Assembly (NCBI GenBank): GCA_030447905.1
Contig: JAUJNZ010000008.1
Location: 44,704-108,703, forward strand
Source of the DNA: Thermoleophilaceae bacterium
Lineage (GTDB): Bacteria; Actinomycetota; Thermoleophilia; Solirubrobacterales; Thermoleophilaceae
Direction: 5' to 3'
DNA: 64,000 bases
In this document: positions 35,459 through 58,470 of the stretch, one piece after another
How the letters are laid out: the number at the start of each line of letters is the position of its first letter
Position numbering within the stretch: position 1 is the first letter of the stretch
Position numbers and translations under genes: made by a program
The notes under the pieces: generated by a model
Seen by the model: only the letters and a program-made list of their open reading frames with translations
What the model was told of the DNA's origin: nothing
Databases searched by the model: none

Positions 35459-36672
35459 GCGCCACTTCCTGGGGAGCGCGGGCCCTCCCCCGCCCTCGAG
35501 ACCTGGCCATAGCACTCGAGCAGCGCCCGCTCCGACTGGTCCCACGACAGCGTGGTCTCGACGCGCCTGCGACCCTCGCGCCCCATCCGCTCGCGCGCGC
35601 CGGGGTCGTCGAGCAGACCGGCGATGCGCTCGGCGAAATCCCGCTCGTCGTTCGGCTGCGCATAGACGGCCGCCTGTGCCGCCGAGACCCGGGCCTCTCG
35701 CAGATCGAACGAGACGATCGGCTTGCTCATCGCCATGTACTCCATGATCTTGTTCATCGTCGAGGCGTCGTTCAGGGGGTTGAGAGGGTCTGGGGACAGG
35801 CAGACGTCAGCACTAGAGAGGTGGCGCAGGACATCGTCGTCCGAAACGCGGCCCGTGAACGTCACGTGGTCCGTAAGACCGAGCTCGCGAGCGAGGACGA
35901 CCAGCGAGGGATACTCGTCCCCCGAACCCACGAAGACGGCGTGCCAGTCGCGGCGATCGAGTTCGTCTCGCAGGCAGGAGAGCGCGCGCAAGGCGTAGTC
36001 GACCCCGTCTTGAGGTCCCATCACGCCCAGGTAACAGAGCAGGTTCGACTTCCCGCGCTTTAGCGAGGGGTCCGGGGGTACGGGAACGAACCGGTCGAGG
36101 CGCGGCCCGCTGCGGACGACGAACACCTGCTCGGGCGACTTGCCCCCACGCGAGAGCGCGGCGGCGCGGTAGGTCTCGTTGGTGGCGATCACCACGTCTG
36201 CGAGCCGAAACGTGATCCGCTCGAGCGCGAGCAACGCCCGGTGAACTGGGCCTGGCCCGCGGTCGAAGCGCGACAGGTACAGCTCGGGAACGAGATCGTG
36301 GTGGTCGAAGACGATCCGCGCCCCCGCAAGCTTGTGGGGCAGGGCGGCGAGGAAGAGAAGGTCGGGCGGGTTGCAGATGTGAACGACGTCGAAGCGACCC
36401 AGCCGCAACCCGAGGACCATCATCCGCAGCAGGGCGGCGCCGTACTCGCGCCCGTAGCCGAGAGGCCCACCGGTGGCCGGGCGCAGGGGAAACCGATGGA
36501 TCCGGACGCCTTCGAGCTCCGCATAGGCCTCGGTGTCATGGCGCTCGCCTCGCGGGCAGACGACGCTAACGTCGTACCCCGCGGCGGCGAGGGCGCGGCT
36601 CTCCTGCCACACCCGCCGGTCGAACGGGACGGACAGGTTCTCGACGAGGACGAGGACCCGGCTACCAGCCAA
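35398..36672 (-). CDS. Glycosyltransferase family 4
   Basis: This is a GT-B glycosyltransferase. The acceptor domain starts VLVLVENLSVPFDRRVWQES, and the donor domain shows YLGVMGPQDGVDYALRAL, FTGRVSDDDVLRHLSSADVCLSP, and the ADP/UDP/GDP-sugar loop NDASTMNKIMEYMAMSKPIV in place of the usual EGxP motif. It is the last gene of a tightly overlapping four-gene operon (11-base overlap with the dehydrogenase gene). Donor sugar cannot be told. The GDP-sugar dehydrogenase next to it makes a uronic acid donor conceivable. Confidence 0.88.
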   Translation of the reverse strand: MAGSRVLVLVENLSVPFDRRVWQESRALAAAGYDVSVVCPRGERHDTEAYAELEGVRIHRFPLRPATGGPLGYGREYGAALLRMMVLGLRLGRFDVVHICNPPDLLFLAALPHKLAGARIVFDHHDLVPELYLSRFDRGPGPVHRALLALERITFRLADVVIATNETYRAAALSRGGKSPEQVFVVRSGPRLDRFVPVPPDPSLKRGKSNLLCYLGVMGPQDGVDYALRALSCLRDELDRRDWHAVFVGSGDEYPSLVVLARELGLTDHVTFTGRVSDDDVLRHLSSADVCLSPDPLNPLNDASTMNKIMEYMAMSKPIVSFDLREARVSAAQAAVYAQPNDERDFAERIAGLLDDPGARERMGREGRRRVETTLSWDQSERALLECYGQVSRAGEGPRSPGSGAQRLRTRWYMRRRRGRVQRR

Positions 36673-37981
36673 CGCCCACGTACCCGGGCTGACCGCGGCG
36701 CTCCTCCGATCCGGGCAGGCGAACGAGGTCGACGATCAGCGAATCGCCGTCCGCACGCGCCAGGGCCTCGACGACCTCGGGCTCCCTGGTCCCGACGATG
36801 CAGACCTCCGCGTGGTCGACGACCTCCGCAGGGGATTCGGCCAGGAGACGGCTGAGGTGGGGGAGGTGCGCATCGAGGTATTCGCGGTTAGACCCGACGA
36901 GGCGAGACAGGGCGACGGTGCCGTCGTACACGCGGAGCTCATAGCCCTTGCCGAGGAGCCGTTCGGTGAGGTCGACGAGCGGACTTTCCCGCAAATCATC
37001 GGTCCCCGACTTGAACGCCAGGCCGAGAACGCCCACCCGGCGCCGGCCCGAGGCGGCGATGAGCTCGAAGGTCCGGCGCAGGTGCGCCTCGTTCGAGGCG
37101 AGCACGCTGCTCAGGATCGGCACCTCGACGTCCTTCCGGCCGGCCTGATGGACGATCGCCCGCAGGTCCTTGGGAAGGCACGACCCGCCGAAGGCGAAGC
37201 CGGGGGACAAGTAGGCGGAGCTGATGTTGAGTTTCGTATCGGAGCGAAAGACCTCCATGAGCTCGTGCGAGTCGAGGCCCAGGCTCCGCGACAGAGCCCC
37301 GATCTCGTTGGCGAACCCCACCTTGAGCGCGTGAAAGGCGTTGTCGGCGTACTTGATCATTTCGGCGATCTGCAGCGGAAGGCGGAAGCGAGGGCCGGGC
37401 AGGCCGTCGTAAAGCCTCGCCACCGGTTCGCCGCTCTCCTCGTCGAGCTCTCCGACGACGGTCTTCGGAGGGTCGTGGAAGTCGCACACGCTAGTCCCCT
37501 CGCGCAGGAACTCGGGATTGACGCACACGCCGAAGTCGCGGCCTGCGGTCCGGCCGGAGGCGCGCTCGAGCAGCGGCACGAGCCGCTCCTCGCAGGTTCC
37601 CGGGAGCATCGTGCTCCGAAAAGCGACGGTATGGCGCCCTTCTTTCTCCGCTAGTGCGGCACCGATCTGCTCGCTGACACGCTCGACGAATGCCGTGTCG
37701 ATGCCACCGTTGGGAGCCGAGGGCGTGCCCACGCAGACGAGCGAGAGCTCGGAGCTCCGAACCGCCTCAGCGGCGTCGTCCGTCGCGCGCAACGCTCCCG
37801 AGCCGACCGCCTCCGCCGTGAGCGCCCCCAGGCGATCCTCGACCACCGGAGCCTCGCCGCGGTTGATCCTCTCGACCTTCCCGGGATCAACGTCGACCCC
37901 GACGACCTCGTGTCCGCGTGCGGCGAAGCACGCCGCCGAAACACACCCGACGTACCCGAGCCCGAAGACGCTCAGCTTCAT
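36662..37981 (-). CDS. GDP-mannose 6-dehydrogenase-like nucleotide-sugar dehydrogenase (AlgD family)
   Basis: It oxidises a nucleotide sugar to the uronic acid with two NAD+. The 439-residue protein begins MKLSVFGLGYVGCVSAACFA and has RSTMLPGT, NPEFLREGT, PPKTVVGELD, EMIKYADNAFHALKVGFANEIG, and catalytic Cys268 in GFAFGGSCLPKD. GLAFKSGTDDLRESPLV and a terminal GVGW complete it. Length, Cys268 position and the TVxGELD motif fit AlgD-type GDP-mannose dehydrogenases better than UDP-glucose dehydrogenases; this is judged from memory of the families. ATG 37981 overlaps the previous stop by four bases. The product would be GDP-mannuronate. Confidence 0.85.
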   Translation of the reverse strand: MKLSVFGLGYVGCVSAACFAARGHEVVGVDVDPGKVERINRGEAPVVEDRLGALTAEAVGSGALRATDDAAEAVRSSELSLVCVGTPSAPNGGIDTAFVERVSEQIGAALAEKEGRHTVAFRSTMLPGTCEERLVPLLERASGRTAGRDFGVCVNPEFLREGTSVCDFHDPPKTVVGELDEESGEPVARLYDGLPGPRFRLPLQIAEMIKYADNAFHALKVGFANEIGALSRSLGLDSHELMEVFRSDTKLNISSAYLSPGFAFGGSCLPKDLRAIVHQAGRKDVEVPILSSVLASNEAHLRRTFELIAASGRRRVGVLGLAFKSGTDDLRESPLVDLTERLLGKGYELRVYDGTVALSRLVGSNREYLDAHLPHLSRLLAESPAEVVDHAEVCIVGTREPEVVEALARADGDSLIVDLVRLPGSEERRGQPGYVGVGW

Positions 37982-38877
37982 GAGCGGCCGGACTCTCGAT
38001 CGCGTGAGGCCATCGAGGTCGACCCCCACCCTGACCGGTCGGTGATCGGGGCCGCTGCGGGTGTGCCGCTCGGCTGCGGACCGTCGCGTCGCGAACGAAC
38101 TCGGTCCAGCGTGTCCTTCCACGGCGAGAGGACGATGCGCCGTCCCGGGGGCGAGAGCTTGAGAGAGAAGCGCGCTCCGTCGTCGCGGTGGTCAACGGCT
38201 ACGCGCGGGATGCTTAGGATGTCGTCGGGCTGACCGCGGTCGTTGCGGACGCTGAAGGCGAAGCGGTAACCGGCGGCCGCGGCGGCGTCCGCCACGCGAG
38301 CGTCCCACTCGCCGAAGGGATATGCGAGCACGTCGCATCGCCCGAGCCGCTCGCGCACACGCGAGCGCGAGTCGTGGAGCTCCTGCCGCAGGCCTTCGTC
38401 TCCGAGCCGGGTGAGGTGGGCATGGGAGCAGGTGTGGCTGCCGAACTCGATACCCGCTGCGGCCATCTCCTCGACCATCGGCCAGCTGAGCGACCGCATG
38501 ATCTGCGGGTACGCCGCTGCATGTCCTCTCACCTCCGGCCAGGCGAACGCGGCCTGCCGGTCGACGAGATCCGGGAGAACGAAGACGATCGCCGGCCACC
38601 CATACTCACGGAGCAGTGGAAATGCGCTAGTGAAGTTGTCGACATAGCCGTCATCGAAGGTGAGGAAGACCTGCGGGGTGCTGAGGCGCCGCCCCGAGGC
38701 GAGCGCGTCGAGGGTGGGCCGGCCGCCCGGGGCCCAGCCTCGCCGCCCAAGCGCGGCGAGCTGGCGTTCGAACAACTCCGGGGACAGCGACAGGAACGGA
38801 GGACCACCCTCGGCGATCGAGTGGTAGCACAGGAATGCCGCCCGGCGCGTACGGTTGCTCATCGCCCGGGGCGTCAT
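37978..38877 (-). CDS. Polysaccharide deacetylase (NodB homology domain)
   Basis: The 299-residue protein has the carbohydrate esterase family 4 motifs: CYHSI, the metal/catalytic TFDDGYVDNF, the zinc-binding SHTCSHAHLTRL, and YPFGEWD. There is no signal peptide, so it acts in the cytoplasm or on a lipid-linked intermediate, as in other exopolysaccharide loci. Overlaps at both ends (ATGA with the neighbouring genes) show that it is translated within the operon. The last 50 residues are Arg/Ser/Pro-rich and may be a disordered tail. Confidence 0.87.
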   Translation of the reverse strand: MTPRAMSNRTRRAAFLCYHSIAEGGPPFLSLSPELFERQLAALGRRGWAPGGRPTLDALASGRRLSTPQVFLTFDDGYVDNFTSAFPLLREYGWPAIVFVLPDLVDRQAAFAWPEVRGHAAAYPQIMRSLSWPMVEEMAAAGIEFGSHTCSHAHLTRLGDEGLRQELHDSRSRVRERLGRCDVLAYPFGEWDARVADAAAAAGYRFAFSVRNDRGQPDDILSIPRVAVDHRDDGARFSLKLSPPGRRIVLSPWKDTLDRVRSRRDGPQPSGTPAAAPITDRSGWGSTSMASRDRESGRS

Positions 38878-41988: not shown

Positions 41989-42126
41989 ATCGGGGCTGAC
42001 CGGCGGCGAGACGCCCTATGGGCGGTCGCGTGCAGGACTTCAGCACACGGGCAAAGTGGACGAACGTCCGAGTTGAGCAGGGATGGGCTCACGCCCGCGG
42101 GCGACGTGGCCGAGAGCGATGAATAC

Positions 42127-43404: not shown

Positions 43405-43425
43405 GCAGAGTGAGCGTCCGTACCG

Positions 43426-44213: not shown

Positions 44214-44563
44214 TAGGTCGCCCTCCTCGTCCCAGTGATCAGGCGGCTTTGGTGCGCCGAGTGAGCGATGGAGTGATCGACGGCAATGGGCTCGGGAGAA
44301 CAGAAACGCTTCGCCAACAAGTTGTCGCGACTTGTACGCGCCCGCGCTGCCCCTCGGCGCGCGTGCTTGCTCGGTAGACTAGCACTCGTACCTAGATCTC
44401 ACTCGAGGGCTGTTATAAATGAATCGGACTAGAGAGCGCGACGGAGCGATCGCAGCGGGTCTGCTCCGGCGCGTGCGGGCCTCGGGGAACCTTTGAACGG
44501 AACACGGCAGAGCCCCCGAGCCGGGTCCCCGGTCAGCGGAGTCGACACCTCGACGGCGGACTC
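44214..44563. other. Non-coding stretch with possible promoter elements
   Basis: This 350-base gap is less GC-rich than its surroundings. GGTAGACTAGC (TAGACT at 44373-44378) and TTATAAATG near 44413-44421 are -10-like elements reading toward the lyase-like gene at 44564. No open frame, repeat or RNA family was recognised. Confidence 0.3.
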
Positions 44564-45548: not shown

Positions 45549-47051
45549 TCAGGGGGCTCCCACCGCTTGCTCGGGACGTTTGAAGAGGGGGAACTCGATC
45601 CGTTTCGGCAGTAGCCGCAAGCGACTCGCGAGCACCCAGTACGCGAGGCCGTAGAGCCCGGTAACCGCGAGCAGCACTGCGACGGCGGACGGGCGCGTGC
45701 TGGCCGATATACCGAAGAGCAGGTAGACGGCCAGGAAGGGCAGCGTCAGCCCACCCGCCAGGATGACCGGCGAGCGGATGGCTCGAAGGTAGATGTCGAT
45801 CGGCAGCCCATAGGACCGATGGAAGTCACGAAGGAAGAGAAGGCTTCCGACGAGGAGAGCGAGGATGGTTCCCGCCAGGACGCCCCAGAGGTCGAAGAGA
45901 GGAGCGAGCGCGAGCGTGAACACCACGTTCAGGACGGCAGTGCGACCGGAGTTGATCGCCACCATGCCCGGTCGGCCGTCGGCGTTGGCGATGTTCATGC
46001 CGACCTCAATGGTCATGCGCGCCAGGTAGGCGACGCTGATCGCGATGACCACCGCCACTCCCTCCTCCGGCGTCGATCCGAGCCACGCCACGAGCAGGAA
46101 GGGGGCGGTCAGGGCCGTGACGATGAGGATGGGAAAGGAGATCGAGACGACACGCTCGGTGTAATGGGAATACATCCGGGCGATTACCGAGCGGCCCCGT
46201 AAGGCGATCTCGGCGGTCGCGGTGGGAAGGAGGGCGGAGATCGTGAGCACGCCGAGCGCTCGGACGGCGTTCGCGGCTCGTGCGCCGAGCTCGTAGGCGG
46301 CCGCCACGCGCACGCCGATCAGGAGAGCGATGATGATCTTGTCGGTCTGGTTGTTGACGATGTCGGAGAGGACATGAACCTGGTTTTGGAGGCTGTAGGC
46401 GATCACCTCCCGAGCCCTCGCCATCGACGGGAGGCTGACCTTCGGGCGGCGCCACACGTAGACCATGGCCGCGGCGCCGAAGGCGATGCGGATCACCTCG
46501 GCCGCGGCGTTCGCGAGCGCATATACGGTGAGGTCGCGGCTCGCGAGCAGAGCGGCGACGCTGAAGGCGAAGTTGAGCACGGCTCCGAACGAGCCGGCGA
46601 CGTTGGGCGGGACCATCACGCGCATGCCCACCGGCACCGCGGCGAGCACGCCCCGGTACTCCTGGGCAATGAGGATCGCGGCGGAGGAGAGCAGCACGAT
46701 CCGCATCTCGTCCGGGCTGAGCACGCCCAGCAGACGAGTCGCGAGCGGCGCCGCGAGCACCGCCGCACCGAAGACCAGAACGCCAAGCGCGGTGGTCACG
46801 AGCAGCCCGAGTCCCAGACACTCGCCGATCGCCTGACGGTCGCCGCGTGAGTCGTGCAGTGCGACGAAGCGGGCGAGTGCCCTGGTGACGCCGAGGTTGA
46901 CGAGGCCGGCGTACGTCGCGACCGCTCCCGTGACCGCCCAGACGCCGAACTGATCGAGCCCCAGGCGGCTCAGCAGGAGCGGCGCGAGGAGGAGCCCGAA
47001 GAAGGAGGCGAGGAATATGGTGCTCGACTGAGCGAGCGTGTTCTTGAACAC
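45549..47051 (-). CDS. Polysaccharide flippase (Wzx/MATE-like)
   Basis: The 500-residue protein has about 12-14 hydrophobic helices and the typical start of Wzx-type flippases (NTLAQSSTIFLASFFGLLLAPLLLSRLG, FGVWAVTGAVATYAGLVNLGVTRALARFV). A mid-protein NNQTDKIIIALLIG segment and a GRPGMVAINSGRTAVLN segment are also usual in the family. It should move lipid-linked repeat units across the membrane for polymerisation. The gene stands alone on the minus strand between the lyase-like gene and the glycosyltransferase-epimerase fusion gene. Confidence 0.88.
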   Translation of the reverse strand: MFKNTLAQSSTIFLASFFGLLLAPLLLSRLGLDQFGVWAVTGAVATYAGLVNLGVTRALARFVALHDSRGDRQAIGECLGLGLLVTTALGVLVFGAAVLAAPLATRLLGVLSPDEMRIVLLSSAAILIAQEYRGVLAAVPVGMRVMVPPNVAGSFGAVLNFAFSVAALLASRDLTVYALANAAAEVIRIAFGAAAMVYVWRRPKVSLPSMARAREVIAYSLQNQVHVLSDIVNNQTDKIIIALLIGVRVAAAYELGARAANAVRALGVLTISALLPTATAEIALRGRSVIARMYSHYTERVVSISFPILIVTALTAPFLLVAWLGSTPEEGVAVVIAISVAYLARMTIEVGMNIANADGRPGMVAINSGRTAVLNVVFTLALAPLFDLWGVLAGTILALLVGSLLFLRDFHRSYGLPIDIYLRAIRSPVILAGGLTLPFLAVYLLFGISASTRPSAVAVLLAVTGLYGLAYWVLASRLRLLPKRIEFPLFKRPEQAVGAP

Positions 47052-47174: not shown

Positions 47175-49391
47175 ATGGCGCGCGTGCCCCCGCGAAGAGT
47201 GTTACTCCTGCTCCCGCATCTCCGCCGAGCAGGAGCGGAGAACGCGCTGGTCCATCTGGCGGTGGGCCTCGCCGAGCGGGGTCACGAGGTCACCGTGGCC
47301 ACCATGGTGGGTCACGGCCGCGATCCCGCGCCGCTGAGCGCGGCGGGCGTGCGTCTCGTCGATCTCGGTGCGCGGGGACGGCTCGACAAGCTGCTCGCCC
47401 TGCCCCGGCTCGTCGCCCTTGCCCGCGACGCCGACCTCGTTCACTGCGGGCTGTGGGACATGACCCTCTGGGGGCGGCTGGCGGCGATCATCGCCCGCCG
47501 CCCGGTCACGGTCTCCGAGCAAACGCCCGGACGCGAGTTCGAGGTGGCGTCCGGAGGCGCGCGACGCGCGCGCTGGGTCTCTCTCCACAACCGGCTGCTC
47601 GCGCCGTTCACCTATGCGGTCGGCGCCTGTGGGCGCTGGCAGATCGACCTGCTCGAGCAGGAGGGCGTCGGGCGTGAGAAGGTCCTCCACATTCCCAACG
47701 GGGTGCCGATCGACGAGCTTCGCACCCGCCGGCCCGGCGACGTCACCCGCGCGGGCCTCGGCATACCCGAGGATGCCCGCGTCGTCGTCCACGTCGCGCG
47801 CTTCGAGCCTCAGAAGAACCAGCGCGCGACGATCGATGCGGTCGCCGCCCTGCGCGCCGAGCTGGGCGACGTGCGCGTGCTGTTTTTGGGAGACGGCGGC
47901 GAGCGCCCGGAGCTCGAACGCTACGCGGAGCGCATCGGGGCCCATGACTGGGCGCTGTTCCTCGGGGTTCGCTCCGATGTCCCGGCCCTGCTGCGACTCG
48001 CTGATCTCGCGGTCCTCCCGTCGTTCGGAGAGGGTCTGCCGGTCGCACTCGTCGAGGGGATCGCCGCCGGCGTCCCCACCGTGGCGACCGACGTCGGCGA
48101 CGTCCGCTGGGTCCTAGAGACCACGGGCGCCGGGCTGTGCGTCCCCCCGCGGTCTCAAGCCGCCTTCGAGGCCGCGTGTCGAGACGTCCTGACCGACGTC
48201 GCGCTTCGTGAGCGACTGGCCGACCGGGCTCGTGCCAGCCGCGACTTCGACGCGTCCACCATGGTCGACCGCTATGAGGTGCTGTTCGAAGCGGCTATCG
48301 AGGGACGGCAACCGCCCGGCCGAGTAGACGGGGGCGGGGCGCAGGAGCCGGATCGCCCGGAGGCGCGAAACTCTGGCCGGCCCTCGCTGCGCCGAAGGGC
48401 GCACGGCGCGGGGCGAGAGATAAGGTCCCTGACCAAGGAGGTCCGGAAGGGCTACGACGCGGTCGTGGGCAGGGGCGAGGACTTCACCCACCAGGCCCAT
48501 GGCCGCCATATCGACCCCGAAGGGCTTCGCGGCTACTACTGCGACTTTCGCCACAAGGCCCTGGCGGCCATGGCCGACAGCCCGGACGGCTTTCCCCGAC
48601 GGTCCTCCGGCGAGCCCTGGGACCTGGTCATCCCGGTCGCCCAGGCGGCGCTCGGCTACTGGGAGCTGAGGCAGGAGGGGCATGAGACCGAGCGCCCGTT
48701 CCTCATGCTCGCCGACTGGCTCGTCGCTCGGGCCGAGGACGGTCCGTCAGGCCTGGCCTGGTACTCGAGCCTTGCCCTTCCGAAATATGACCTCGACCCG
48801 GGATGGCCATCGGCCATGGGGCAGAGCGAGGCGATCTCGGTACTCCTGCGCGCACACGACCTGACCGGCGAGCGCCATTACCTCGAAACCGCGTCCGCAG
48901 CTCTCGAGGTGATGACTGCAGAAGTCTCGGAGGGCGGGGTGTCGCGCCGGATCGACGGCCACCTCGTTCTCGAGGAGTACGCGACCGAGAGGCCCCTGGC
49001 CATCCTGAACGGGTGGATCTTCTCCCTCTTCGGCCTGCACGAGCTCTTCCAGGTCACCGGCGACGAGCGCGCGCGCGACATCTTCGCCATGAGCCGCGAG
49101 GGACTCCTCGCCCTCTTGCCGCGCTACGACGTCGGTTGGTGGTCTCTCTATAGCCTCTACGACCACGGCCGCCCCGATCTCGCCAAGCCGTTCTATCAGC
49201 GACTGCACCCCGTGTTGCTCGACGGCCTCCACCTCGTGGCGCCTGACGAACGCCTCTTCGCCTACGCGCGGATATGGGAGGCCCAGCTCACTCCGCTCGC
49301 ACTGGCTCGCAACGCGGTGGACAAGGTCTCCTTCCGCATCTGGCGGGAGCTCCACGCCGACGCGGCTCCCCTGCCCGCTGCCCGTCTCTAA
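47175..49391 (+). CDS. Glycosyltransferase family 4 fused to a glucuronyl C5-epimerase domain
   Basis: Residues 1-375 are a complete GT4 enzyme: LLLPHLRRAGAENALVHLAVGLA, HIPNGVPIDE, VHVARFEPQKNQRATIDAV, LPSFGEGLPVALVEGIAAGVPTVAT. After a Gly/Arg linker, residues about 413-738 match the D-glucuronyl C5-epimerase C-terminal domain: LAWYSSLALPKYD, MGQSEAISVLLRAHDLTGERHYL, VLEEYATERPLAILNGWIFSLFG split across Glu601-Tyr602, then WWSLYSLYD with Tyr659 and KPFYQRLHPVLLDGLH with Tyr674. These are the positions of active-site Glu and Tyr residues in the heparan-sulfate epimerase. The frame is uninterrupted, so the fusion is real in this sequence. It suggests linked transfer and epimerisation of a uronic acid. 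Confidence 0.88.
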   Translation: MARVPPRRVLLLLPHLRRAGAENALVHLAVGLAERGHEVTVATMVGHGRDPAPLSAAGVRLVDLGARGRLDKLLALPRLVALARDADLVHCGLWDMTLWGRLAAIIARRPVTVSEQTPGREFEVASGGARRARWVSLHNRLLAPFTYAVGACGRWQIDLLEQEGVGREKVLHIPNGVPIDELRTRRPGDVTRAGLGIPEDARVVVHVARFEPQKNQRATIDAVAALRAELGDVRVLFLGDGGERPELERYAERIGAHDWALFLGVRSDVPALLRLADLAVLPSFGEGLPVALVEGIAAGVPTVATDVGDVRWVLETTGAGLCVPPRSQAAFEAACRDVLTDVALRERLADRARASRDFDASTMVDRYEVLFEAAIEGRQPPGRVDGGGAQEPDRPEARNSGRPSLRRRAHGAGREIRSLTKEVRKGYDAVVGRGEDFTHQAHGRHIDPEGLRGYYCDFRHKALAAMADSPDGFPRRSSGEPWDLVIPVAQAALGYWELRQEGHETERPFLMLADWLVARAEDGPSGLAWYSSLALPKYDLDPGWPSAMGQSEAISVLLRAHDLTGERHYLETASAALEVMTAEVSEGGVSRRIDGHLVLEEYATERPLAILNGWIFSLFGLHELFQVTGDERARDIFAMSREGLLALLPRYDVGWWSLYSLYDHGRPDLAKPFYQRLHPVLLDGLHLVAPDERLFAYARIWEAQLTPLALARNAVDKVSFRIWRELHADAAPLPAARL

Positions 49392-50533
49392 CCGAGCCGC
49401 GATTCGGTGTGGGCCGCCGGGCGCCCGGGGCCGAGATGGCTCCGATAGGCCTCGAGCGTGAGCTCCGCGACTCTGCTCCAGCTGGTCCCTGCCCCCGAGC
49501 GTGCGGCGGCTGCACCCATGGCCTCCGCCCGACCGCGGTCGGTGACGATCTCGAGCACCGCTTCGGCGAGCGCCCGCGGGTCCTCGGGCGGGACAAGCCG
49601 CCCGAGGTCGGGTGAGACGAGCTGGGGGAGGCCTCCGACCGAGCTGGCGACGATCGCTCGGCCGTGAGCCTTCGCGAGCGAGCCGACGCCGCTCTGGCTC
49701 GCCTGGCGGTAAGGCAGGACCACGCACGTCGCGCCTTCGAACAGCTCGGGTAGCTCGTCCTCTGGCACGTGTCCGTGGCGAAGCGTCACCCGCGCGTCGG
49801 AGAGGATCGGGTGGTCGAGGAGTGGGCCACTGCCGGCCACGACGAGGCGAGTCTCGGGCGCGGAGGCCCAGACGGTGGGCAGCGCGTCGAGCAGGGTGTC
49901 CAGCCCCTTGTAGAAGGAGAGCCTGCCGAAGAACAGCAGGGAAGGCTTCTGCGGCAGCGGCCGGTGCAGCGGCTCGTCGACGCCATGGGGGATGACGGCG
50001 ACGGCGCCCTGCGGGCGCTCGCGCTCGATCAGCTCATCGCGCAGGGCGTCCCCATGGACGAACACGAGGGACGCCGCACGGATGAGCCGGCTGCGGACCG
50101 CCCGCTTCCAGCGGCTCCTGATCGTGTCGCCCGGGTGCGGCGAAGGGTCGTGCACTGTTATCGCCAGCCTGGAGGGCGACAGAGGGCTCGCTCCGATGAG
50201 CCGGACGTCGTCCACCACCGAGTCCTGCAGATGGACGACGTTCGGAGCGAAGCCCCTCGCCGTCCGCCGCGCCCTCCAGGCCGTGGGTAGGGCAGAGAGG
50301 TCGCGCACGCGGCCGTCGATCTCCGCGCGCTCGGCCGCGCCGCCGAGCCGCTGCTCGGCAAAGGTCCGCATGGCCCCCGCCTCGCCCCCGAACTCGTGGT
50401 CGTGGGTTCGGCAGAGGAGAGACACCGGGCAGTCGTGGGCGATCAGCCCGCCGGCGAGCCCGATGCTGTACTTCGCGAAATGGTCAAAGGCCAGCAGGAC
50501 GCGCGGAGGGTGTGGCGCCTCACGGCGAGTCAT
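49388..50533 (-). CDS. Glycosyltransferase family 4
   Basis: The 381-residue GT-B protein shows VLLAFDHFAKYSIGLAGGLIAH, VVHLQDSVVDDVRL, LLFFGRLSFYKGLDTLLDALP, and VVLPYRQASQSGVGSLAKAHGRAIVAS, where SQSGV replaces the usual EGFP-type donor loop. Its start overlaps the end of the O-antigen ligase gene by 14 bases, so it is the last gene of the BY-kinase/ligase/GT operon. Its stop overlaps the stop of the convergent fusion gene by four bases. Confidence 0.88.
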   Translation of the reverse strand: MTRREAPHPPRVLLAFDHFAKYSIGLAGGLIAHDCPVSLLCRTHDHEFGGEAGAMRTFAEQRLGGAAERAEIDGRVRDLSALPTAWRARRTARGFAPNVVHLQDSVVDDVRLIGASPLSPSRLAITVHDPSPHPGDTIRSRWKRAVRSRLIRAASLVFVHGDALRDELIERERPQGAVAVIPHGVDEPLHRPLPQKPSLLFFGRLSFYKGLDTLLDALPTVWASAPETRLVVAGSGPLLDHPILSDARVTLRHGHVPEDELPELFEGATCVVLPYRQASQSGVGSLAKAHGRAIVASSVGGLPQLVSPDLGRLVPPEDPRALAEAVLEIVTDRGRAEAMGAAAARSGAGTSWSRVAELTLEAYRSHLGPGRPAAHTESRLG

Positions 50534-52022
50534 GGCCGTCGCGGCGCCACGCGGTCTCGGGCGCCGCGCTGCGCGCGGTGCTCGCGACGATCGCTCCGCT
50601 GATCACTCCGATCGCCGCGGTCATGTCGGGGACGCTGAAGTAGAGCATCACGACCGAGCTGAGCATGATCGTCGCGAGCCCCACGCCGCAGGCGGCCATG
50701 CTCGGGTCTCGCTCGTTTCTCCTCCACGCCAGCCGGAGCGTCTTGCCGAGGAAGACGAGAAAGGCGATGAGGCCCGGCACCCCGGCCACGAGCACCAGGT
50801 AGAGATACTGATTGTGAAGGAAGCGGCGGGGCAGCCGCACGTAGCGGTCCTCGACGGTGAAATCGGCGATGTGGGCGCCATACGGAGCCCCGACGCCGAC
50901 CCCGAGAACCGGGTGATCGAGAGCCGTCGCCCAGCCCCGCTCGATCTCGTAGCGGCGGTCGTCGGCCGAGCTTGACTCGCCCACGGCCTGGAGGTTGCCG
51001 AGCGTGGCGGCGCGGTCGATCAGCGGCGTGACCCGGGAGCCCTGAGGTGCGGTGGGCGCGAGGAAGGCCATGAGGGCGATGCCGGCGGCACCGACGGCCA
51101 CGCCGCGGGCGAGCGTGTAGCGCACCTGGCCGCGAGAGAGGACGAGCAGCAGCCCGAGGCCGACGAGGAGGCCGACCCACATGTTGCGGTTGAAGGAGAT
51201 GGCGAGGTTCAGCGCCTGGCCGGCGAGCACCCCGGCCCAGAGCAGCCGTCGGGTACCTCGCGCCTGGCCGAGTTGTACGACCGCGAACCAGAAGAGGCCG
51301 TATGCGAGCCCCAGGCCCGGCAGCCGGACGCGGCTGATGAGCCCGAGCCCCTCCTGGGCGCGGATGAACTGCCGGCCGGGGTCCTGGAGCAACTCGCCCA
51401 CCCCCTGATGGAGTGCCGCGACCAGGGCCACTAGGCCCGTAACGCTGGCGATCACCGCGGCGACCACCAGCACGCGGTGCGCCGAGCGTGCGTCAGGGAA
51501 GAGCCGTACCCCGACGTAGAAGAGCGAGAGCAGCACGAACGGGCGTCCCCAGTTGACGACATCGGTGGGCTCGACCCGGCCGACGCTGAGCGCGAGGGCC
51601 GCGGATAGAGCGAGCAGGCCGAAGAAGATGGCCAGCGCCCCCCCGGCCGTCCCTCCCCACGTCGCCCGCCGCGGCCGCACGAGCGCAACGAACAGGACGC
51701 CGAGCAGGACGATCTCGTGCAGCCGGATGCTCAGCGCGCCGGCTTCGATCGCGAAGAACGACTCATGAAAGGCTGAGTCGGTAAGCACCAGAAGGGCGGT
51801 TACGCCGAGCAGGGGCCACCGCAGGAACAACGCGAGCACCACGACCGCCGCCGGGGCGAGGAGGAGGACGTTCAGGCGCGGGTCGGCGATGACCAGCGCG
51901 AGCAACGCCTCGGCCACGAGCGTGACCGCGACCGCCGCGACCGCCGCCTGGCGGCTACCGAGTCTGACCCCTGCGCTACTGAGACGCCGAAGCGGCGGAC
52001 TGTCCGTAGTAGTAATAGTCAC
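50520..52022 (-). CDS. O-antigen ligase/polymerase-like membrane protein
   Basis: The 500-residue protein has about 12 membrane helices and the Wzy_C domain pattern: a large periplasmic loop (GSRVTPLIDRAATLGN, DDRRYEIERGWATALDHPVLGVGVGAPYG) followed by RFLHNQYLYLVLVAGVPGLIAFLVF. Such proteins polymerise repeat units or transfer them to an anchor. The GTG start lies within the last codons of the BY-kinase gene (47-base overlap), which is unusual; the tyrosine-rich kinase tail is read in another frame there. It is co-transcribed with the kinase and a glycosyltransferase. Confidence 0.85.
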   Translation of the reverse strand: MTITTTDSPPLRRLSSAGVRLGSRQAAVAAVAVTLVAEALLALVIADPRLNVLLLAPAAVVVLALFLRWPLLGVTALLVLTDSAFHESFFAIEAGALSIRLHEIVLLGVLFVALVRPRRATWGGTAGGALAIFFGLLALSAALALSVGRVEPTDVVNWGRPFVLLSLFYVGVRLFPDARSAHRVLVVAAVIASVTGLVALVAALHQGVGELLQDPGRQFIRAQEGLGLISRVRLPGLGLAYGLFWFAVVQLGQARGTRRLLWAGVLAGQALNLAISFNRNMWVGLLVGLGLLLVLSRGQVRYTLARGVAVGAAGIALMAFLAPTAPQGSRVTPLIDRAATLGNLQAVGESSSADDRRYEIERGWATALDHPVLGVGVGAPYGAHIADFTVEDRYVRLPRRFLHNQYLYLVLVAGVPGLIAFLVFLGKTLRLAWRRNERDPSMAACGVGLATIMLSSVVMLYFSVPDMTAAIGVISGAIVASTARSAAPETAWRRDGHDSP

Positions 52023-53622
52023 CGCCGTGGACCGGCCTAGCGAAATTGGCGACGAGCCCGAGAGGACGTCCGCCGAGCAGAGCGACCTGCTTGCGGAAAT
52101 CGGAGGCCGCGTCGCGCGTCGTCTCGCCCAAGCCGCACACGATGATCACGCCCGAGACGCTCGGGACGAGGGATAGGGCGTCGCTGACCATCGACAGGGC
52201 GGGCGTGTCGAGGATCACGAGGTTGAACCGTGACTCGAGCACTTCGAGCACCGCACGCATGCGCGTGCTCTCGAGCAGTTCGGTCGGATTCGGCGGTGGC
52301 GGGCCGGCCCGGACCATGGTCAGCTGGCGAGTGTCGGCGCCCCCGCCCGAGCTCGGGACCGGGACGTTGACCAGGCAGTCATCGAGGTTCGCTCCGGTTA
52401 GCAGCGACGAGAGGCCCAGTGCGGGCTGGCGACCGTTGGGCAGGGCGGCCTGCTTGTGCAGGTCGGCCTCGACCAAGACCACGCTGTCGCCCATGGAGGC
52501 CATGGTCATGGCCAAGTTGCGCGCGACCGTCGACTTGCCCTCCCCGGCCAGAGCGCTCGCAACGAGTACCGAGCGGATGGGCTCATCGACACTGAAATAG
52601 CGGAGGTTCGCGCGCAGGGTGCGAAAAACCTCGGCGTCGCGCGAAGGCAGCCATGTATCCCCGCCCTCGGTCTCCGAGGCGGTCACGCCCTCGCTACGCG
52701 GAACCCGAGTCAGGATGGGCAGTTCGAAGAGCTCCTCGAGTTCCTTCGCGTCTCGAATCCGCCGGTCCGACCGCTCGAGCAGGGCCGCGAGCCCGAAGCC
52801 GACGACCCCGCCGACGATCAGACCGAGCAGGAGGTTGCGCAGCGGCTTGGGGGAGGAGGGGCTGCTGGGCGGCGTCGCCGTCTGAACCAGCTCCGCGTCT
52901 CCGGTCTGCACGGCCCGGGCTACCTGAAGCTGCTCGAGGCGATCCCGCAGCTCTTGCCCGTCTTGGCCGGAGCGCTTCGCCGGCGACAGCGCAGAGAGGT
53001 TGGCGCGTACGAGGCGGAGCGCGCTGTCGACGCGTCTCTGATCGGCTTCCCGGCGGAAGGCGATGTACGCTTCGCCGTAGGCGTCGGCCAGAGCCGCCGC
53101 CCGCTTCGGCGTGTCGGCCTCCGCCTCGATCTCCACGAGGTCGGCTTCCCCCGTCGACTTCACGTTGATCGACTCCTCGACCTGCTTGCCGGTGGTGCCA
53201 CGCCCGAGGTCCTTCGCGGCTCGCGCGGCTACGACCGGCAGCGCAATGAGCTCCTCGTTGGTCGCGGCTTCCCGAGAGGGATCGATCGTCGGCCTGCTCC
53301 CCTGGGTGTCCAGCAGATCCTCGGCATCGCGGAAGAGGACGGTCGAGGAGGCGGTGTAGCGCTCTGGCTGCAACAGGGAGAAGAGCAGCGCGAGCAGCGG
53401 AACCAGCACGAGCGCCTGCAGGAAGACCCACTTGCGGTTGCGGACGATCCGAAGCGCCTGGTCGACCACTCCCTCCTCGGGCGGGGCGTCCTGGCCACTC
53501 CGTCCGCCTCGCGTAGGGACGGCGGGGCCCCGGGCGTGCCCACGTCCCGGAAACGTGAGGCCGGCGTAGGATTGCTGCGAGTAGAGGCTCGCCTCGGGCG
53601 GGTCGTTGCGGTGAAGGGTCAT
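51976..53622 (-). CDS. Bacterial tyrosine kinase, Wzz/CapA-CapB fusion type
   Basis: The 548-residue protein joins a chain-length (Wzz) domain with two membrane helices (VFLQALVLVPLLALLFSLL near the start, LRNLLLGLIVGGVVGFGLAALLE in the middle) to a cytoplasmic BY-kinase. The kinase has Walker A SALAGEGKSTVARNLA, Walker A' VVLVEADLHKQ and Walker B LVILDTPALS. It ends in a tyrosine cluster (GGDYYYYGQ), the usual autophosphorylation site. It controls polymer length and export. The partner phosphatase is probably encoded at 53838, transcribed divergently. Confidence 0.92.
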   Translation of the reverse strand: MTLHRNDPPEASLYSQQSYAGLTFPGRGHARGPAVPTRGGRSGQDAPPEEGVVDQALRIVRNRKWVFLQALVLVPLLALLFSLLQPERYTASSTVLFRDAEDLLDTQGSRPTIDPSREAATNEELIALPVVAARAAKDLGRGTTGKQVEESINVKSTGEADLVEIEAEADTPKRAAALADAYGEAYIAFRREADQRRVDSALRLVRANLSALSPAKRSGQDGQELRDRLEQLQVARAVQTGDAELVQTATPPSSPSSPKPLRNLLLGLIVGGVVGFGLAALLERSDRRIRDAKELEELFELPILTRVPRSEGVTASETEGGDTWLPSRDAEVFRTLRANLRYFSVDEPIRSVLVASALAGEGKSTVARNLAMTMASMGDSVVLVEADLHKQAALPNGRQPALGLSSLLTGANLDDCLVNVPVPSSGGGADTRQLTMVRAGPPPPNPTELLESTRMRAVLEVLESRFNLVILDTPALSMVSDALSLVPSVSGVIIVCGLGETTRDAASDFRKQVALLGGRPLGLVANFARPVHGGDYYYYGQSAASASQ

Positions 53623-54692: not shown

Positions 54693-56198
54693 CTAGTAAG
54701 CCCCACGTCGCGACAACACCGCCGGCACGGTGGCCAGCAGGATCTCGATGTCGCGGGCGAGCGACCATCCCGCCACGTACTGATAGTCGAAGCGAATCAT
54801 CTCGTGGAAGGGAATCTGGGAGCGACCCGAGATCTGCCATAGCCCGGTCATGCCGGGCCGCAGATCGAGCCGACGCTCGTGCCAGTCGTGCTCGAGCGCG
54901 GCCGTCTCTTCGAGGATGAGGGGACGGGGACCGACCAGGCTCATATCGCCGCGGAGGACGTTGAAGAGCTGGGGCAGCTCGTCGAGCGAGAGGGTGCGCA
55001 GGAGCGCCCCGACGCGGGTGATCCGCGGATCGTCCTTGATCTTGAACATGACGCCGTCGTCGAGGTCGTTCTCCTTGGCGTACTCGAGCTTGCGCTGGTC
55101 GGCGTCGCGGTACATCGACCGGAACTTGAGCACCTCGATCGTCCTGCGGCTGCGGCCCGATCGGCGCTGGCGGAAGAAGACCGGACCCGGGGACTCGAGC
55201 TTGATGGCAATGGCCAGGGCGGCAAGGAGCGGGGCCAGCACGATGAGGGCCAGAGCCGAGCCGGCGACGTCGAGCATGCGCTTCGCCACTCGCGAGGCCC
55301 GGGTTAGCTTCGGAGCACCGATCGAGAGCAGCGGCAGCCCGCCGATCTGATCCAACGCGCGGGCGCCGCCGATGAACTCGAACAACCGCGGGACGATGTC
55401 GACGGCCACCTGGCGATCACGGCAGGCTCTGATGCTCGAGAGCAGCTGCTCGTGCGTCGCGCGGGAGAAGGCGATGATCACCCGGTCCACGCTCTGCTCC
55501 TCGAGGACGTCGACTAGGTCGTCGAGCCGGCCGAGGTGGGGTAGGTCGGTCATCTGCGGCTCGTGGATCTCGTCGTCGACGAGCCCGAGGGGGATGAGCC
55601 CATAGTGCGCCGAGCTCGTGAGCTTGCGGGCGACCTGTCCGGCGACGAGGCCCGAGCCGACGATCAGGGTCCTCTGCTGCAGGGCGGTCAGCCGGTGGGC
55701 GAGCGCCCGCGCTCCCGCCCGACCGACCCCGCTGAGCAGGCCCACGGCCGGAACGGAGACGAGTCCGGCCATCGGCGCGCTGCGCGTGCCGAGAGCGACG
55801 GCGACCCCGAAGATCGGCCAGGAGGCGACGATCGAGGCGGTCAGGAGGCGCGGGGTCTCCGGGACGCCGCTCACCCACGAGCGCAGATCGTCGCCCGTGT
55901 AGAGACCGCACGCAAACGCGAGCGCCGGCCAGAGGAGGGTGACGCCGACGACAAGCCCGATCCCCGCGCCGGACTGGACCCCGGCGGCGAGGGCCACGAG
56001 CGCTCCGGCGCCCAGGCCGGCGAGCAGGTCGGCGAGGAAGAGCAGACGGCGCAGGATGCTCCAGCGCTCAGCTCCCCGGGTGCGCTCGGTGGCGCGGCCG
56101 GCCTCGAGGACCTCGACACCCTCGGACTCATCTGTGGGAGGGGGGCGGAGGCTGCCCCGGAAGAGGGTCCCAGGATCTTCCGTGACTTTACCGATCAT
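54693..56198 (-). CDS. Undecaprenyl-phosphate sugar-1-phosphate transferase (WbaP/polyprenyl glycosylphosphotransferase)
   Basis: It starts repeat-unit synthesis by moving a sugar phosphate to undecaprenyl phosphate. Four hydrophobic helices lead the protein. A Rossmann-like CoA-binding segment (QQRTLIVGSGLVAGQVARKL, DRVIIAFSRATHEQLL) follows, then a membrane helix and the catalytic domain. Visible motifs are KRMLDVAGSALALIVLAPLLAALAIAIKLESPGPVFFRQ (split here between SPGPVFFRQ and its helix), FRSMYRDAD, LRTLSLDELPQLFNVL, and PGMTGLWQISGRS. ATG 56198 removes about 115 low-complexity residues of the longer open frame. It is convergent with the phosphatase gene. Confidence 0.88.
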   Translation of the reverse strand: MIGKVTEDPGTLFRGSLRPPPTDESEGVEVLEAGRATERTRGAERWSILRRLLFLADLLAGLGAGALVALAAGVQSGAGIGLVVGVTLLWPALAFACGLYTGDDLRSWVSGVPETPRLLTASIVASWPIFGVAVALGTRSAPMAGLVSVPAVGLLSGVGRAGARALAHRLTALQQRTLIVGSGLVAGQVARKLTSSAHYGLIPLGLVDDEIHEPQMTDLPHLGRLDDLVDVLEEQSVDRVIIAFSRATHEQLLSSIRACRDRQVAVDIVPRLFEFIGGARALDQIGGLPLLSIGAPKLTRASRVAKRMLDVAGSALALIVLAPLLAALAIAIKLESPGPVFFRQRRSGRSRRTIEVLKFRSMYRDADQRKLEYAKENDLDDGVMFKIKDDPRITRVGALLRTLSLDELPQLFNVLRGDMSLVGPRPLILEETAALEHDWHERRLDLRPGMTGLWQISGRSQIPFHEMIRFDYQYVAGWSLARDIEILLATVPAVLSRRGAY

Positions 56199-56439
56199 GG
56201 TCGTGGGCGCCTTCTCGCCGCTCGTTCTTGCCGGTCCACCCGGCGCGACGGTTGTCTGAGGGCCGCCAGGGGCTGACCTTACTCGGTTTGGCGGTGAAGG
56301 GGTCGTAGTGGACCGGCGCGGCCGGCTTCGGTCGCCGTCTCGGCGCACCGCCGAGTCGATCTGCGTGAGGCTCCCTGTAGGGTCTTCATCTCCAGCTCGC
56401 GTTGCCTCCCTGGGGGAAGCCGGGTCTCCCGCGTCGAAC

Positions 56440-58470
56440 ATGTCCTCTCTGTTATCGGCACGAGACCCGGGGGCTGTAGGAAAGTTGCGGAGGGATCGAT
56501 CGGTGGCCGGGGCGCTCGTGGCGCTGCCCGGAGCGCTCACTCTTTACCTCAGCTTCAGCAGCGGAGGCTTCTTTCCGGACGCGACCGGACTGGCGGTGGT
56601 CGTGGTTTCGCTCGTCCTCGTGGTGCGAATCACGCTGGCCGAGAGACCATTCGCCGGAGTTTCCGGACTCGTCCTCCTCGCCGGGGGGGCGCTGACCCTC
56701 CTCGCGATCTGGACGCTCCTGTCGGCGCTCTGGTCGGGGTCTCCGGCTCGCGCCCTGCTCGAGTTCGACCGGACGCTCCTCTATCTACTCGCCCTCGTCA
56801 CGCTCGCCACCTTGCCCGTCACGGCGCCACGGCTCGAGTGGGCGCTGCGGGCCTTCGCCGGCGCGGTGAGCGTGGTCTGCCTGGCGGGGCTCACGAGCAG
56901 GCTGTTGCCCGACGTCCTGGCTACGGAGCCCTCGGCCCTCGTCGAGCGCCTGAGCTATCCGGTTGATTACTGGAACGCGCTTGGCCTGCTGGCCGCCGTC
57001 GGCGCGATTGCGTGCCTGCACCTGACGAGCGGACCGGGCCAGCCGCGAGCGGTGCGGGCTCTGAGTGCCGGGGCGATTCCGCTGCTCGCGTCCACGCTGC
57101 TCCTTACCTTCTCGCGCGGGGCGATCGCCGTCGCGGTTCTGGGCGCGCTCGTCTACGCGTTACTCGGGCGGCCCTGGGGCCTGCTCAGTACGGCTTTGGC
57201 CGCAGGACCGACCACGGCGCTTGCCCTCGTCCAGACCTACGGGGCCGAGCTGCTCGGCCGCGAGGGTGCCGCGGCCCCCGCTGCTATCGCGCAGGGCCAT
57301 GAGCTCGCGCCGGTCCTCCTTGCATGTGCGCTCGGGGCGGGCCTTCTCCGGCTCGGTCTCGCCCCCGTCGATGAGCTGATCGAGGGCGGTGCCAAGCGCC
57401 AGGCGGCGGCAAACGCGGGCATTCCCCGACGCGCCAAGCTGGCGGGAGGGGCGACGGTCGCGCTCGCTCTGGTCGCTCTCCTCCTGGCGCTCGACGTGCC
57501 CGACCGCGTCGAGCGCCAGTACGCGCGTTTCGTCGCGGGAGACACCCTCGCCACCGCCGACACTCGCGACCGGCTGACGAGCCCCGCCAACAACGGTCGC
57601 CTGGATCATTGGAAGGTCGCAGTCGATGCCTTCAGCGCCGCACCGCTTCGGGGCCAGGGCGCCGGGAGCTACCAGATCCTATGGGCTCGCGACCGGGACT
57701 CGGACTTCAATGTCCTCGACGGCCACTCGCTGTATCTCGAGTCGCTCGCTGAGCTCGGCTTGATCGGCTTGGGCCTGCTCGTCCTCGTGCTGCTGGCCCT
57801 CGGGGGCGCCCTCGCCGTCCGCGCCCGCGGCCGCAACCGCAGCCTCTACGCCGCCGTTCTCGCCGCCGTCCTCGCCTGGGCCGTGCATGCGGGCGTCGAC
57901 TGGCACTGGGAGATGCCGGCGGTCACAACGTGGGTCTTCGCCCTCGGTGGCCTGGCGATCGCGGCGCCTGCGGGGGAGACCGGCCGCGCCCAGGGGCCGG
58001 CACCGCTCTCGCGCATCGTGGCCGCGCTCGGGTGCCTACTGCTCGCGGTCACGCCCGCCCTCGCCGCGCTGTCCCAGCGGGCCCTCGACGAGAGCGTCGC
58101 CGCCTTTCGCCGCGGCGACTGCACCCGCAGCGTCGACGCCGCCATCACGTCGATCTCCTATCTAAGCGTCCGGCCCCAGCCCTTCGAGCTGCTCGCCTAC
58201 TGCGACGTCCGAGCGGGATTCTCGGAGCTCGCGGTCAAGAGCATGCGCAATGCCCTCGCCCGCGACCCGGCGAACTGGGAGTACCACTACGGGCTCGCGC
58301 TCGTGCGGGGCGCGGCCGGGCTCGATCCTCGGCCTCCGGCCGCAGTCGCGCTCGCCCTCAACCCCCTCAGCCCGCTGACGCAGGAGGCGGCCATCGAGCT
58401 CGGAACGGCCGACAGGTCCCCCGAATGGCGAAGGCGGGCCCTGGAGGCCCGCCTTCCGCTCGCGCCTTGA
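56440..58470 (+). CDS. O-antigen ligase-like membrane protein with C-terminal TPR-like region
   Basis: The 676-residue protein has about 12 membrane helices with the Wzy_C signature: NGRLDHWKVAVDAFSAAPLRGQGAGSYQILWA and DGHSLYLESLAELGLIGLGLLVLVLLALGG. After the last helix, residues about 565-676 are helical and TPR-like (ALDESVAAFRRGDCTRSVDAA, VKSMRNALARDPANWEYHYGLALV). ATG 56440 is favoured over a longer frame from 56308. The 241-base gap to the divergent sugar transferase has no recognisable RNA element. Two such ligases in one locus suggest separate polymerase and attachment roles. Confidence 0.83.
   Translation: MSSLLSARDPGAVGKLRRDRSVAGALVALPGALTLYLSFSSGGFFPDATGLAVVVVSLVLVVRITLAERPFAGVSGLVLLAGGALTLLAIWTLLSALWSGSPARALLEFDRTLLYLLALVTLATLPVTAPRLEWALRAFAGAVSVVCLAGLTSRLLPDVLATEPSALVERLSYPVDYWNALGLLAAVGAIACLHLTSGPGQPRAVRALSAGAIPLLASTLLLTFSRGAIAVAVLGALVYALLGRPWGLLSTALAAGPTTALALVQTYGAELLGREGAAAPAAIAQGHELAPVLLACALGAGLLRLGLAPVDELIEGGAKRQAAANAGIPRRAKLAGGATVALALVALLLALDVPDRVERQYARFVAGDTLATADTRDRLTSPANNGRLDHWKVAVDAFSAAPLRGQGAGSYQILWARDRDSDFNVLDGHSLYLESLAELGLIGLGLLVLVLLALGGALAVRARGRNRSLYAAVLAAVLAWAVHAGVDWHWEMPAVTTWVFALGGLAIAAPAGETGRAQGPAPLSRIVAALGCLLLAVTPALAALSQRALDESVAAFRRGDCTRSVDAAITSISYLSVRPQPFELLAYCDVRAGFSELAVKSMRNALARDPANWEYHYGLALVRGAAGLDPRPPAAVALALNPLSPLTQEAAIELGTADRSPEWRRRALEARLPLAP

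What the first reader, a model, noticed from the sequence alone, without database searches (positions are those of the whole stretch)
47175..49391. One polypeptide combines a GT4 glycosyltransferase with a glucuronyl C5-epimerase domain
Heparan-sulfate-type C5-epimerase domains are best known as separate enzymes acting on finished polymer. Here the epimerase domain is joined in frame to a complete glycosyltransferase, with Glu601-Tyr602, Tyr659 and Tyr674 at the places of the active-site Glu/Tyr residues. This predicts linked addition and epimerisation of a uronic acid, giving an iduronate- or guluronate-like unit in an actinobacterial polysaccharide. I know of no description of this fusion.
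Basis: partly seen in the sequence, partly recalled or inferred. Interest (0 to 1): 0.88.

Follow-up and report, generated by a model that had tools for sequence, protein, structure and literature searches.

The report
Glycosyltransferase fused to uronic-acid C5-epimerase
A soil-type actinobacterium carries one gene whose protein joins a sugar-adding enzyme to an enzyme of the kind that turns glucuronic acid into iduronic acid (the sugar that makes heparin flexible), which suggests that this bacterium makes the rarer sugar inside the cell while the chain is being built rather than on the finished polymer.

Summary
Window 47175-49391 (+) is one open 738-aa frame: a complete GT4 glycosyltransferase (res 1-383), a 29-residue disordered linker and a GLCE-type C5-epimerase catalytic domain (PF06662, E 4e-39). 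Five human GLCE catalytic residues (E499, Y500, N510, Y560, Y578) correspond to E601, Y602, N612, Y659, Y674. The model of the domain (pLDDT 93) matches human GLCE best. Neither half's nearest relatives carry this fusion. The closest GT4s (45-54% identical) lack the epimerase, and one sits in a syntenic cluster without it. The closest epimerases (51-56%) are stand-alone in four genomes. In a fifth genome the epimerase is fused to an unrelated GT, a PssE/GT28 half of a GT pair whose Rhizobium member adds glucuronate. Another lineage fuses it to a deacetylase. The GT4 fusion is therefore recent and so far seen once, but the pattern of joining this epimerase to cytoplasmic EPS-assembly enzymes recurs. 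The cluster is Wzx/Wzy-type with a UDP-glucose dehydrogenase, so the likeliest function is conversion of GlcA to an IdoA-type residue on the lipid-linked repeat unit before export. Activity, the sugar the GT4 adds, and the reality of the single-genome junction remain untested.

The parts
47175..49391 (+). fused gene, 738 aa, GT4 - linker - C5-epimerase
   Evidence: single open frame; codon usage favours this frame over both halves and no frame in the linker
47175..48323 (+). GT4 glycosyltransferase domain (res 1-383); E286-x7-E294 motif, ARFEPQKN at res 208; no transmembrane segment or signal peptide evident
   Evidence: Pfam, motif and hydrophobicity scan, AF2 blocks mostly above pLDDT 90
48324..48410 (+). 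linker, res 384-412, predicted disordered; contains no ATG/GTG/TTG codon in frame
   Evidence: AF2 pLDDT <50 for 384-412; start-codon scan
48411..49388 (+). GLCE-type C5-epimerase catalytic alpha-helical domain (res 413-738)
   Evidence: PF06662 4.1e-39; AF2 pLDDT 93; Foldseek top hits human/zebrafish GLCE, E 2.6e-13, 1.9 A over 216 columns
48975..48980 (+). Glu601-Tyr602 (human GLCE E499-Y500)
   Evidence: alignment; E in 26/27 and Y in 22/27 sequences
49008..49010 (+). Asn612 (human GLCE N510)
   Evidence: invariant in 27 sequences; catalytic in GLCE (PMC13308652)
49149..49151 (+). Tyr659 (human GLCE Y560)
   Evidence: invariant in 27 sequences
49194..49196 (+). Tyr674 (human GLCE Y578)
   Evidence: invariant in 27 sequences
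36662..38122 (-). UDP-glucose/GDP-mannose dehydrogenase family protein, probable UGDH giving UDP-GlcA
   Evidence: PF03721 4.3e-49
45549..47051 (-). Wzx-type flippase, divergent neighbour
   Evidence: PF01943/PF13440
49388..50533 (-). convergent GT4 glycosyltransferase (GT4b)
   Evidence: PF13692 5.1e-23
50520..52022 (-). Wzy-type polymerase/ligase
   Evidence: PF04932 4.8e-15
51976..53622 (-). Wzc-like chain-length/tyrosine-kinase protein
   Evidence: assigned from the translation; homologues sit in most of the related clusters
54693..56540 (-). WbaP-like initiating sugar-phosphate transferase
   Evidence: assigned from the translation; homologues of 54-58% identity in clusters L099-L103
38874..40112 (-). 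GT4c; its orthologue lies next to the stand-alone epimerase in genus g38
   Evidence: PF13692 2.1e-32
37978..38877 (-). polysaccharide deacetylase; a family fused to the epimerase in genome G095
   Evidence: PF01522 1.3e-26

Best explanation
The protein is a two-domain, soluble enzyme of Wzx/Wzy-type exopolysaccharide assembly. The GT4 domain adds a sugar to the undecaprenyl-linked repeat unit at the cytoplasmic face of the membrane, either the glucuronate itself or the sugar that flanks it. The tethered GLCE-type domain then inverts C5 of that glucuronate to an L-iduronate-type residue, before flipping and polymerisation. The flexible linker keeps the second active site on the same lipid-linked substrate. 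Shown here: the fusion frame, both folds (predicted), all five GLCE catalytic residues, the cluster content, and a parallel fusion to a PssE-type GT. Inferred: catalytic activity, cytoplasmic timing, substrate and product.
For: Domains and residues. Fold of the epimerase half. Two ordered domains joined by a disordered linker, with pTM (0.66) as expected for a flexible pair. UDP-glucose dehydrogenase, flippase and Wzy in the same cluster. No signal peptide or transmembrane segment evident. The same epimerase clade (100/99 support) is fused in G123 to the PssE half of a PssD/PssE transferase (PF04101 1.6e-9; NF041548 2e-23, below its curated cut-off; PssD neighbour above its curated cut-off). 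PssDE of Rhizobium adds GlcA to the lipid-linked glucose (PMC7589315). Other relatives fuse or couple it to cytoplasmic-type assembly enzymes: a deacetylase and a hexapeptide transferase, and a GT4 with a TGATG overlap in G027. Precedent for C5-epimerisation of GlcA on a lipid-linked glycan before export: Agl32 of Halobacterium, which has an unrelated active site (PMC13308652).
Against: No activity data. The sugar added by the GT4 cannot be read from sequence: the nearest solved GT4s are BshA, MshA, PimA and WaaG types. Orthologues of this GT4 occur in clusters that lack the epimerase, so its product is not always epimerised. [quoted passage not shown] The animal beta-hairpin and beta-sandwich domains are absent. 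No PssD or PssE was found in this genome.
Confidence: 0.58

Rival explanations
1. The two domains are both active, but the fusion is only a co-expression device: the epimerase works on the polymer or on a residue unrelated to the one the GT4 adds.
For: The GT4 clade is found without the epimerase, and the epimerase clade is found with other GTs. The linker is predicted disordered. In 56 non-Thermoleophilia relatives the upstream gene is a GT4 in only about 9, otherwise varied EPS genes.
Against: Fusion or tight pairing with a transferase happened more than once in this order (GT4 here, PssE in G123, TGATG-overlapping GT4 in G027). No export signal for action on finished polymer outside the cell.
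Confidence: 0.22
2. The fusion is a sequencing or assembly artefact, or a species-level stop-codon loss with no functional consequence; in the living cell there are two proteins.
For: It is seen in one genome only; near relatives of the two halves are not joined to each other. The linker shows no preferred coding frame. A TAG lies in another frame just after the GT, and a GTG at codon 431 with purine-rich sequence upstream could serve as an internal start.
Against: No ATG/GTG/TTG in frame between codons 369 and 431, although the helix at 411-431 is present in the related clade. The GTG at 431 would cut that helix off, and its purine-rich upstream stretches are poorly spaced. A different GT-epimerase fusion exists in a single-contig genome (G123).
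Confidence: 0.12
3. The epimerase half has changed reaction (for example a lyase, or an epimerase of another uronate giving a guluronate-type residue).
For: Human R563, three residues after Y560, is Tyr662 in the window. The family is wide, and only one bacterial member is recorded as characterised (PMC13308652).
Against: All five listed GLCE catalytic residues are kept; guluronate-forming epimerases of alginate are a different protein family (own knowledge).
Confidence: 0.08

Closest known systems
Human/zebrafish heparan-sulfate D-glucuronyl C5-epimerase (GLCE; 6hzz, 6i01, 4pw2, 4pxq)
   Same: catalytic alpha-helical domain (29% identity, 1.9 A over 216 columns) and all five catalytic residues
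   Different: no N-terminal beta-hairpin or beta-sandwich domains, fused to a GT4, predicted cytoplasmic; GLCE is a Golgi enzyme working on polymer
RED65_08024 C5-epimerase of Bermanella marisrubri (Raedts 2013, cited in PMC4432689 and PMC13308652)
   Same: bacterial enzyme of the GLCE type that makes IdoA in vitro
   Different: reported as a separate enzyme and assayed on heparin-type polymers; its sequence was not compared here
Agl32 of Halobacterium salinarum (PMC13308652)
   Same: works-like: C5-epimerises GlcA on a lipid-linked glycan before membrane crossing
   Different: unrelated active site, not a GLCE family member, no fusion described
PssE-C5-epimerase fusion in genome G123 (L103:8143-9666)
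   Same: same epimerase clade (52% identity), same position at the C terminus of a GT
   Different: GT28_C/PssE half of a two-subunit transferase instead of a GT4
Stand-alone epimerases of genus g38 (L099-L102, JAFDW MAGs)
   Same: 51-56% identical, in clusters with WbaP, Wzc, GT4c, deacetylase and UGDH
   Different: separate gene, no fused GT
AlgG/AlgE mannuronan C5-epimerases
   Same: polymer-level C5 inversion of a uronate in bacteria
   Different: different family and compartment (periplasmic or extracellular; PMC4432689)

Membership tests
D-glucuronyl C5-epimerase family (PF06662) | Pfam score above the gathering cut-off | tested here: met
   134.5 bits against 23.3
D-glucuronyl C5-epimerase family (PF06662) | catalytic residues E499, Y500, N510, Y560, Y578 | tested here: met
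   E601, Y602, N612, Y659, Y674 by alignment (residue list)
D-glucuronyl C5-epimerase family (PF06662) | alpha-helical catalytic domain fold of GLCE | tested here: met
   Foldseek ranks 1-8 are GLCE chains, E 2.6e-13 to 4.8e-12
D-glucuronyl C5-epimerase family (PF06662) | GlcA to IdoA activity | not testable with these tools
   needs an assay
Animal GLCE architecture | N-terminal beta-hairpin and central beta-sandwich domains | tested here: not met
   catalytic domain only; GT4 in their place
Glycosyltransferase family GT4 | GT-B type Glyco_transf_4 and Glycos_transf_1 domains and E-x7-E motif | tested here: met
   PF13439, PF00534; E286-x7-E294
Glycosyltransferase family GT4 | glucuronosyl specificity (of the mechanism proposed, not of the family) | not testable with these tools
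   nearest solved GT4s have other donors
Wzx/Wzy-dependent EPS cluster | flippase, polymerase, co-polymerase and initiating transferase together | tested here: met
   Wzx and Wzy by Pfam; Wzc and WbaP from their translations and homologues in related clusters

The most novel reading that the evidence does not exclude
A single bacterial polypeptide adds a sugar to a lipid-linked repeat and inverts C5 of a glucuronate on that same intermediate: an in-line iduronate-making enzyme that sets the sugar during assembly, in contrast to the polymer-level epimerases (GLCE, DS-epi1, AlgG). The separate PssE-epimerase fusion suggests the arrangement evolved at least twice.
Probability: 0.35. Interest if true: 0.72.

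Novelty: new variant of a known kind. Interest (0 to 1): 0.52.

Why it matters
Only one GLCE-type bacterial C5-epimerase is recorded as characterised in the papers read here, and bacterial iduronate has few assigned genes. A fusion, with parallels to other assembly enzymes, points to where and when iduronate is made in bacteria (cytoplasm, lipid-linked unit). It gives a defined enzyme to test that idea, and a possible one-protein route to defined iduronate-containing oligosaccharides.

Tried and rejected
(1) Frameshift artefact as the main reading: no in-frame ATG/GTG/TTG start for the epimerase and a conserved first helix argue against it, but reads are not held, so it is kept as a rival. (2) Reading long stop-to-stop frames as fusions (for example L015, L021, L027, L029, L109, L111): in these, scanned by Pfam, the N-terminal part has no domain; they are probably open frames of GC-rich DNA. 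Real other architectures: epimerase-deacetylase (L114), epimerase-Hexapep (L182), F5/8 or CWB2 domains (L117, L127). (3) The GT4s next to other Solirubrobacterales epimerases as orthologues of the fused GT4: the tree puts them in a separate clade. (4) The two secreted neighbours at 42073-45502 as known lyases: no Pfam match for either and no informative NCBIfam match; the one tried by PDB sequence search (44564-45502) gave only 4hxc, E 0.041. (5) PssD/PssE elsewhere in the genome: none. (7) Plasmid records: only three distant hits, no fusion annotated.

Full report
Observation. Window 47175-49391 (+) is one open frame of 738 codons. Pfam finds both halves of a GT4 glycosyltransferase (PF13439, PF00534) and, at residues 537-702, C5-epim_C (PF06662) at E 4.1e-39. 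The sequence search of the PDB with residues 413-738 returns human and zebrafish GLCE (E 6.6e-19 to 2.8e-17). It is the only PF06662 protein found in the genome, which has 25 contigs and 95% completeness.

Active site. The list of GLCE catalytic residues is E499, Y500, N510, Y560 and Y578 (PMC13308652). Counting along the alignment to 6hzz/6i01 gives E601, Y602, N612, Y659 and Y674. The residue offset of 90 is inferred from the chain end, and the 6i01 sequence carries Phe at the place of Y578. In 27 aligned sequences N612, Y659 and Y674 are invariant, E601 is kept in 26 and Y602 in 22. Human R563 is not kept (Tyr662 here).

Fold. The epimerase half folds with mean pLDDT 93 and its best structural matches are the eight GLCE chains (E 2.6e-13 to 4.8e-12, about 1.9 A over 216 columns). 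Weaker matches are alpha/alpha-barrel sugar epimerases such as cellobiose 2-epimerase. The full-length model has two well-ordered parts, residues 1-383 and 413-732, joined by 384-412 at pLDDT below 50; pTM 0.66 fits two domains with no fixed relative position. No signal peptide or transmembrane helix is evident, so a cytoplasmic enzyme is inferred.

Is the fusion real? Codon usage favours the annotated frame on both sides of the linker and favours no frame inside it, so this test is silent there. The stronger argument is that between codons 369 and 431 there is no ATG, GTG or TTG in frame, while the helix at 411-431 is shared with the stand-alone relatives L099-L102, with L103 and with L104/L107. 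From a standard start that helix is made only by translation through the GT. A GTG at codon 431 has AAGGAGG and GGAAGG upstream at poor spacing, so some internal initiation cannot be excluded. Reads across the junction were not available.

Relatives of the epimerase half. In 232 genomes of the order, the nearest are five at 51-56% identity. Four (genus g38; L099-L102) are stand-alone genes beside a divergent GT4c and a deacetylase, with UGDH, WbaP and Wzc near. The fifth, in the single-contig genome G123 (L103), is fused to the C terminus of a PssE/GT28_C protein (PF04101 1.6e-9; NF041548 2e-23) directly after a PssD gene above its curated cut-off. These six form one clade at 100/99, with L103 outside the window plus g38 (94/71, moderate). 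Since the partners are different GT families, the two fusions are taken as separate events (inference). G095 fuses a more distant member to a polysaccharide deacetylase, and a KSB1 genome to a hexapeptide transferase. Among about 60 further relatives from other phyla (Acidobacteriota, Bacteroidota, Chloroflexota and others) all but that hexapeptide case are short frames that leave no room for a GT domain.

Relatives of the GT half. Seven homologues in six genomes of the order, 45-54% identical, form a 99/99 clade with the window GT4. None carries an epimerase. Most end shortly after the GT domain, L230 continues into a GT4c-type domain, and L233 is interrupted by N. G016 (L228) is the most telling: flippase (-), this GT4 (+), Wzy (-), Wzc (-) lie in the order of the window, with the GT4 alone and no epimerase beside it; the only PF06662 protein of G016 is of a longer, distant type. 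The GT4s next to other Solirubrobacterales epimerases belong to another clade. In G027 such a pair overlaps by TGATG (overlap read from the two translations), a state one step from fusion.

Surroundings. The cluster has a UDP-glucose dehydrogenase family protein, flippase and Wzy, Wzc- and WbaP-like proteins, three further GT4s (one, GT4d at 35398-36672, assigned from its translation), a deacetylase and an asparagine-synthase-type protein. UDP-GlcA supply and lipid-linked assembly are therefore plausible locally. No PssD/PssE was found in the genome, so another transferase must add GlcA; the fused GT4 is a candidate but its donor cannot be read from sequence.

Mechanism. Most likely the protein acts on the undecaprenyl-linked repeat unit in the cytoplasm, and the tethered domain inverts C5 of a GlcA to an IdoA-type residue before export. 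The G123 fusion to a PssE-type subunit supports a link to GlcA addition, because PssDE adds GlcA to the lipid-linked glucose in Rhizobium (PMC7589315). Members of the PssE family can have other donors, however (own knowledge). [quoted passage not shown] Agl32 shows that C5-epimerisation on a lipid-linked glycan before export occurs in nature, by an unrelated active site.

Novelty. Searches of the open paper library found no description of a GT-GLCE fusion; absence there is weak evidence, since most subscription papers are not held. The epimerase family and GT4 are well known, so this is a new architecture of known parts: a new variant of a known kind.

Noticed in passing
42073-43404 and 44564-45502 (+): Two paralogous, apparently secreted proteins (signal-like N termini, shared 'FE-G-F-EW-WWGQGD' motif) with no Pfam match; a homologue (46%) lies in the syntenic cluster of G016 (L228:143-859). 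Possibly enzymes acting on the EPS.
   Followed up: partly
L103:8143-9666: PssE (GT28_C)-C5-epimerase fusion behind PssD in a single-contig genome of another family of the order; a second GT-epimerase architecture.
   Followed up: yes
L114:6628-8472 (-): C5-epimerase fused to a polysaccharide deacetylase (PF06662 + PF01522) in genome G095.
   Followed up: partly
L182:4078-5427 (+): C5-epimerase fused to a hexapeptide-repeat transferase in a KSB1 MAG.
   Followed up: no
L230:6803-9250 (-): Orthologue of the window's fused GT4 joined in frame to an orthologue of GT4c (816 aa open frame) in G115: gene fusion may be frequent in these clusters.
   Followed up: no
L229:7615-10268 (+): Two tandem copies of the GT4 orthologue in genome G086.
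   Followed up: no
L020, L028 (genus g19 genomes G042, G033): Tandem pairs of longer C5-epim_C proteins side by side.
   Followed up: no
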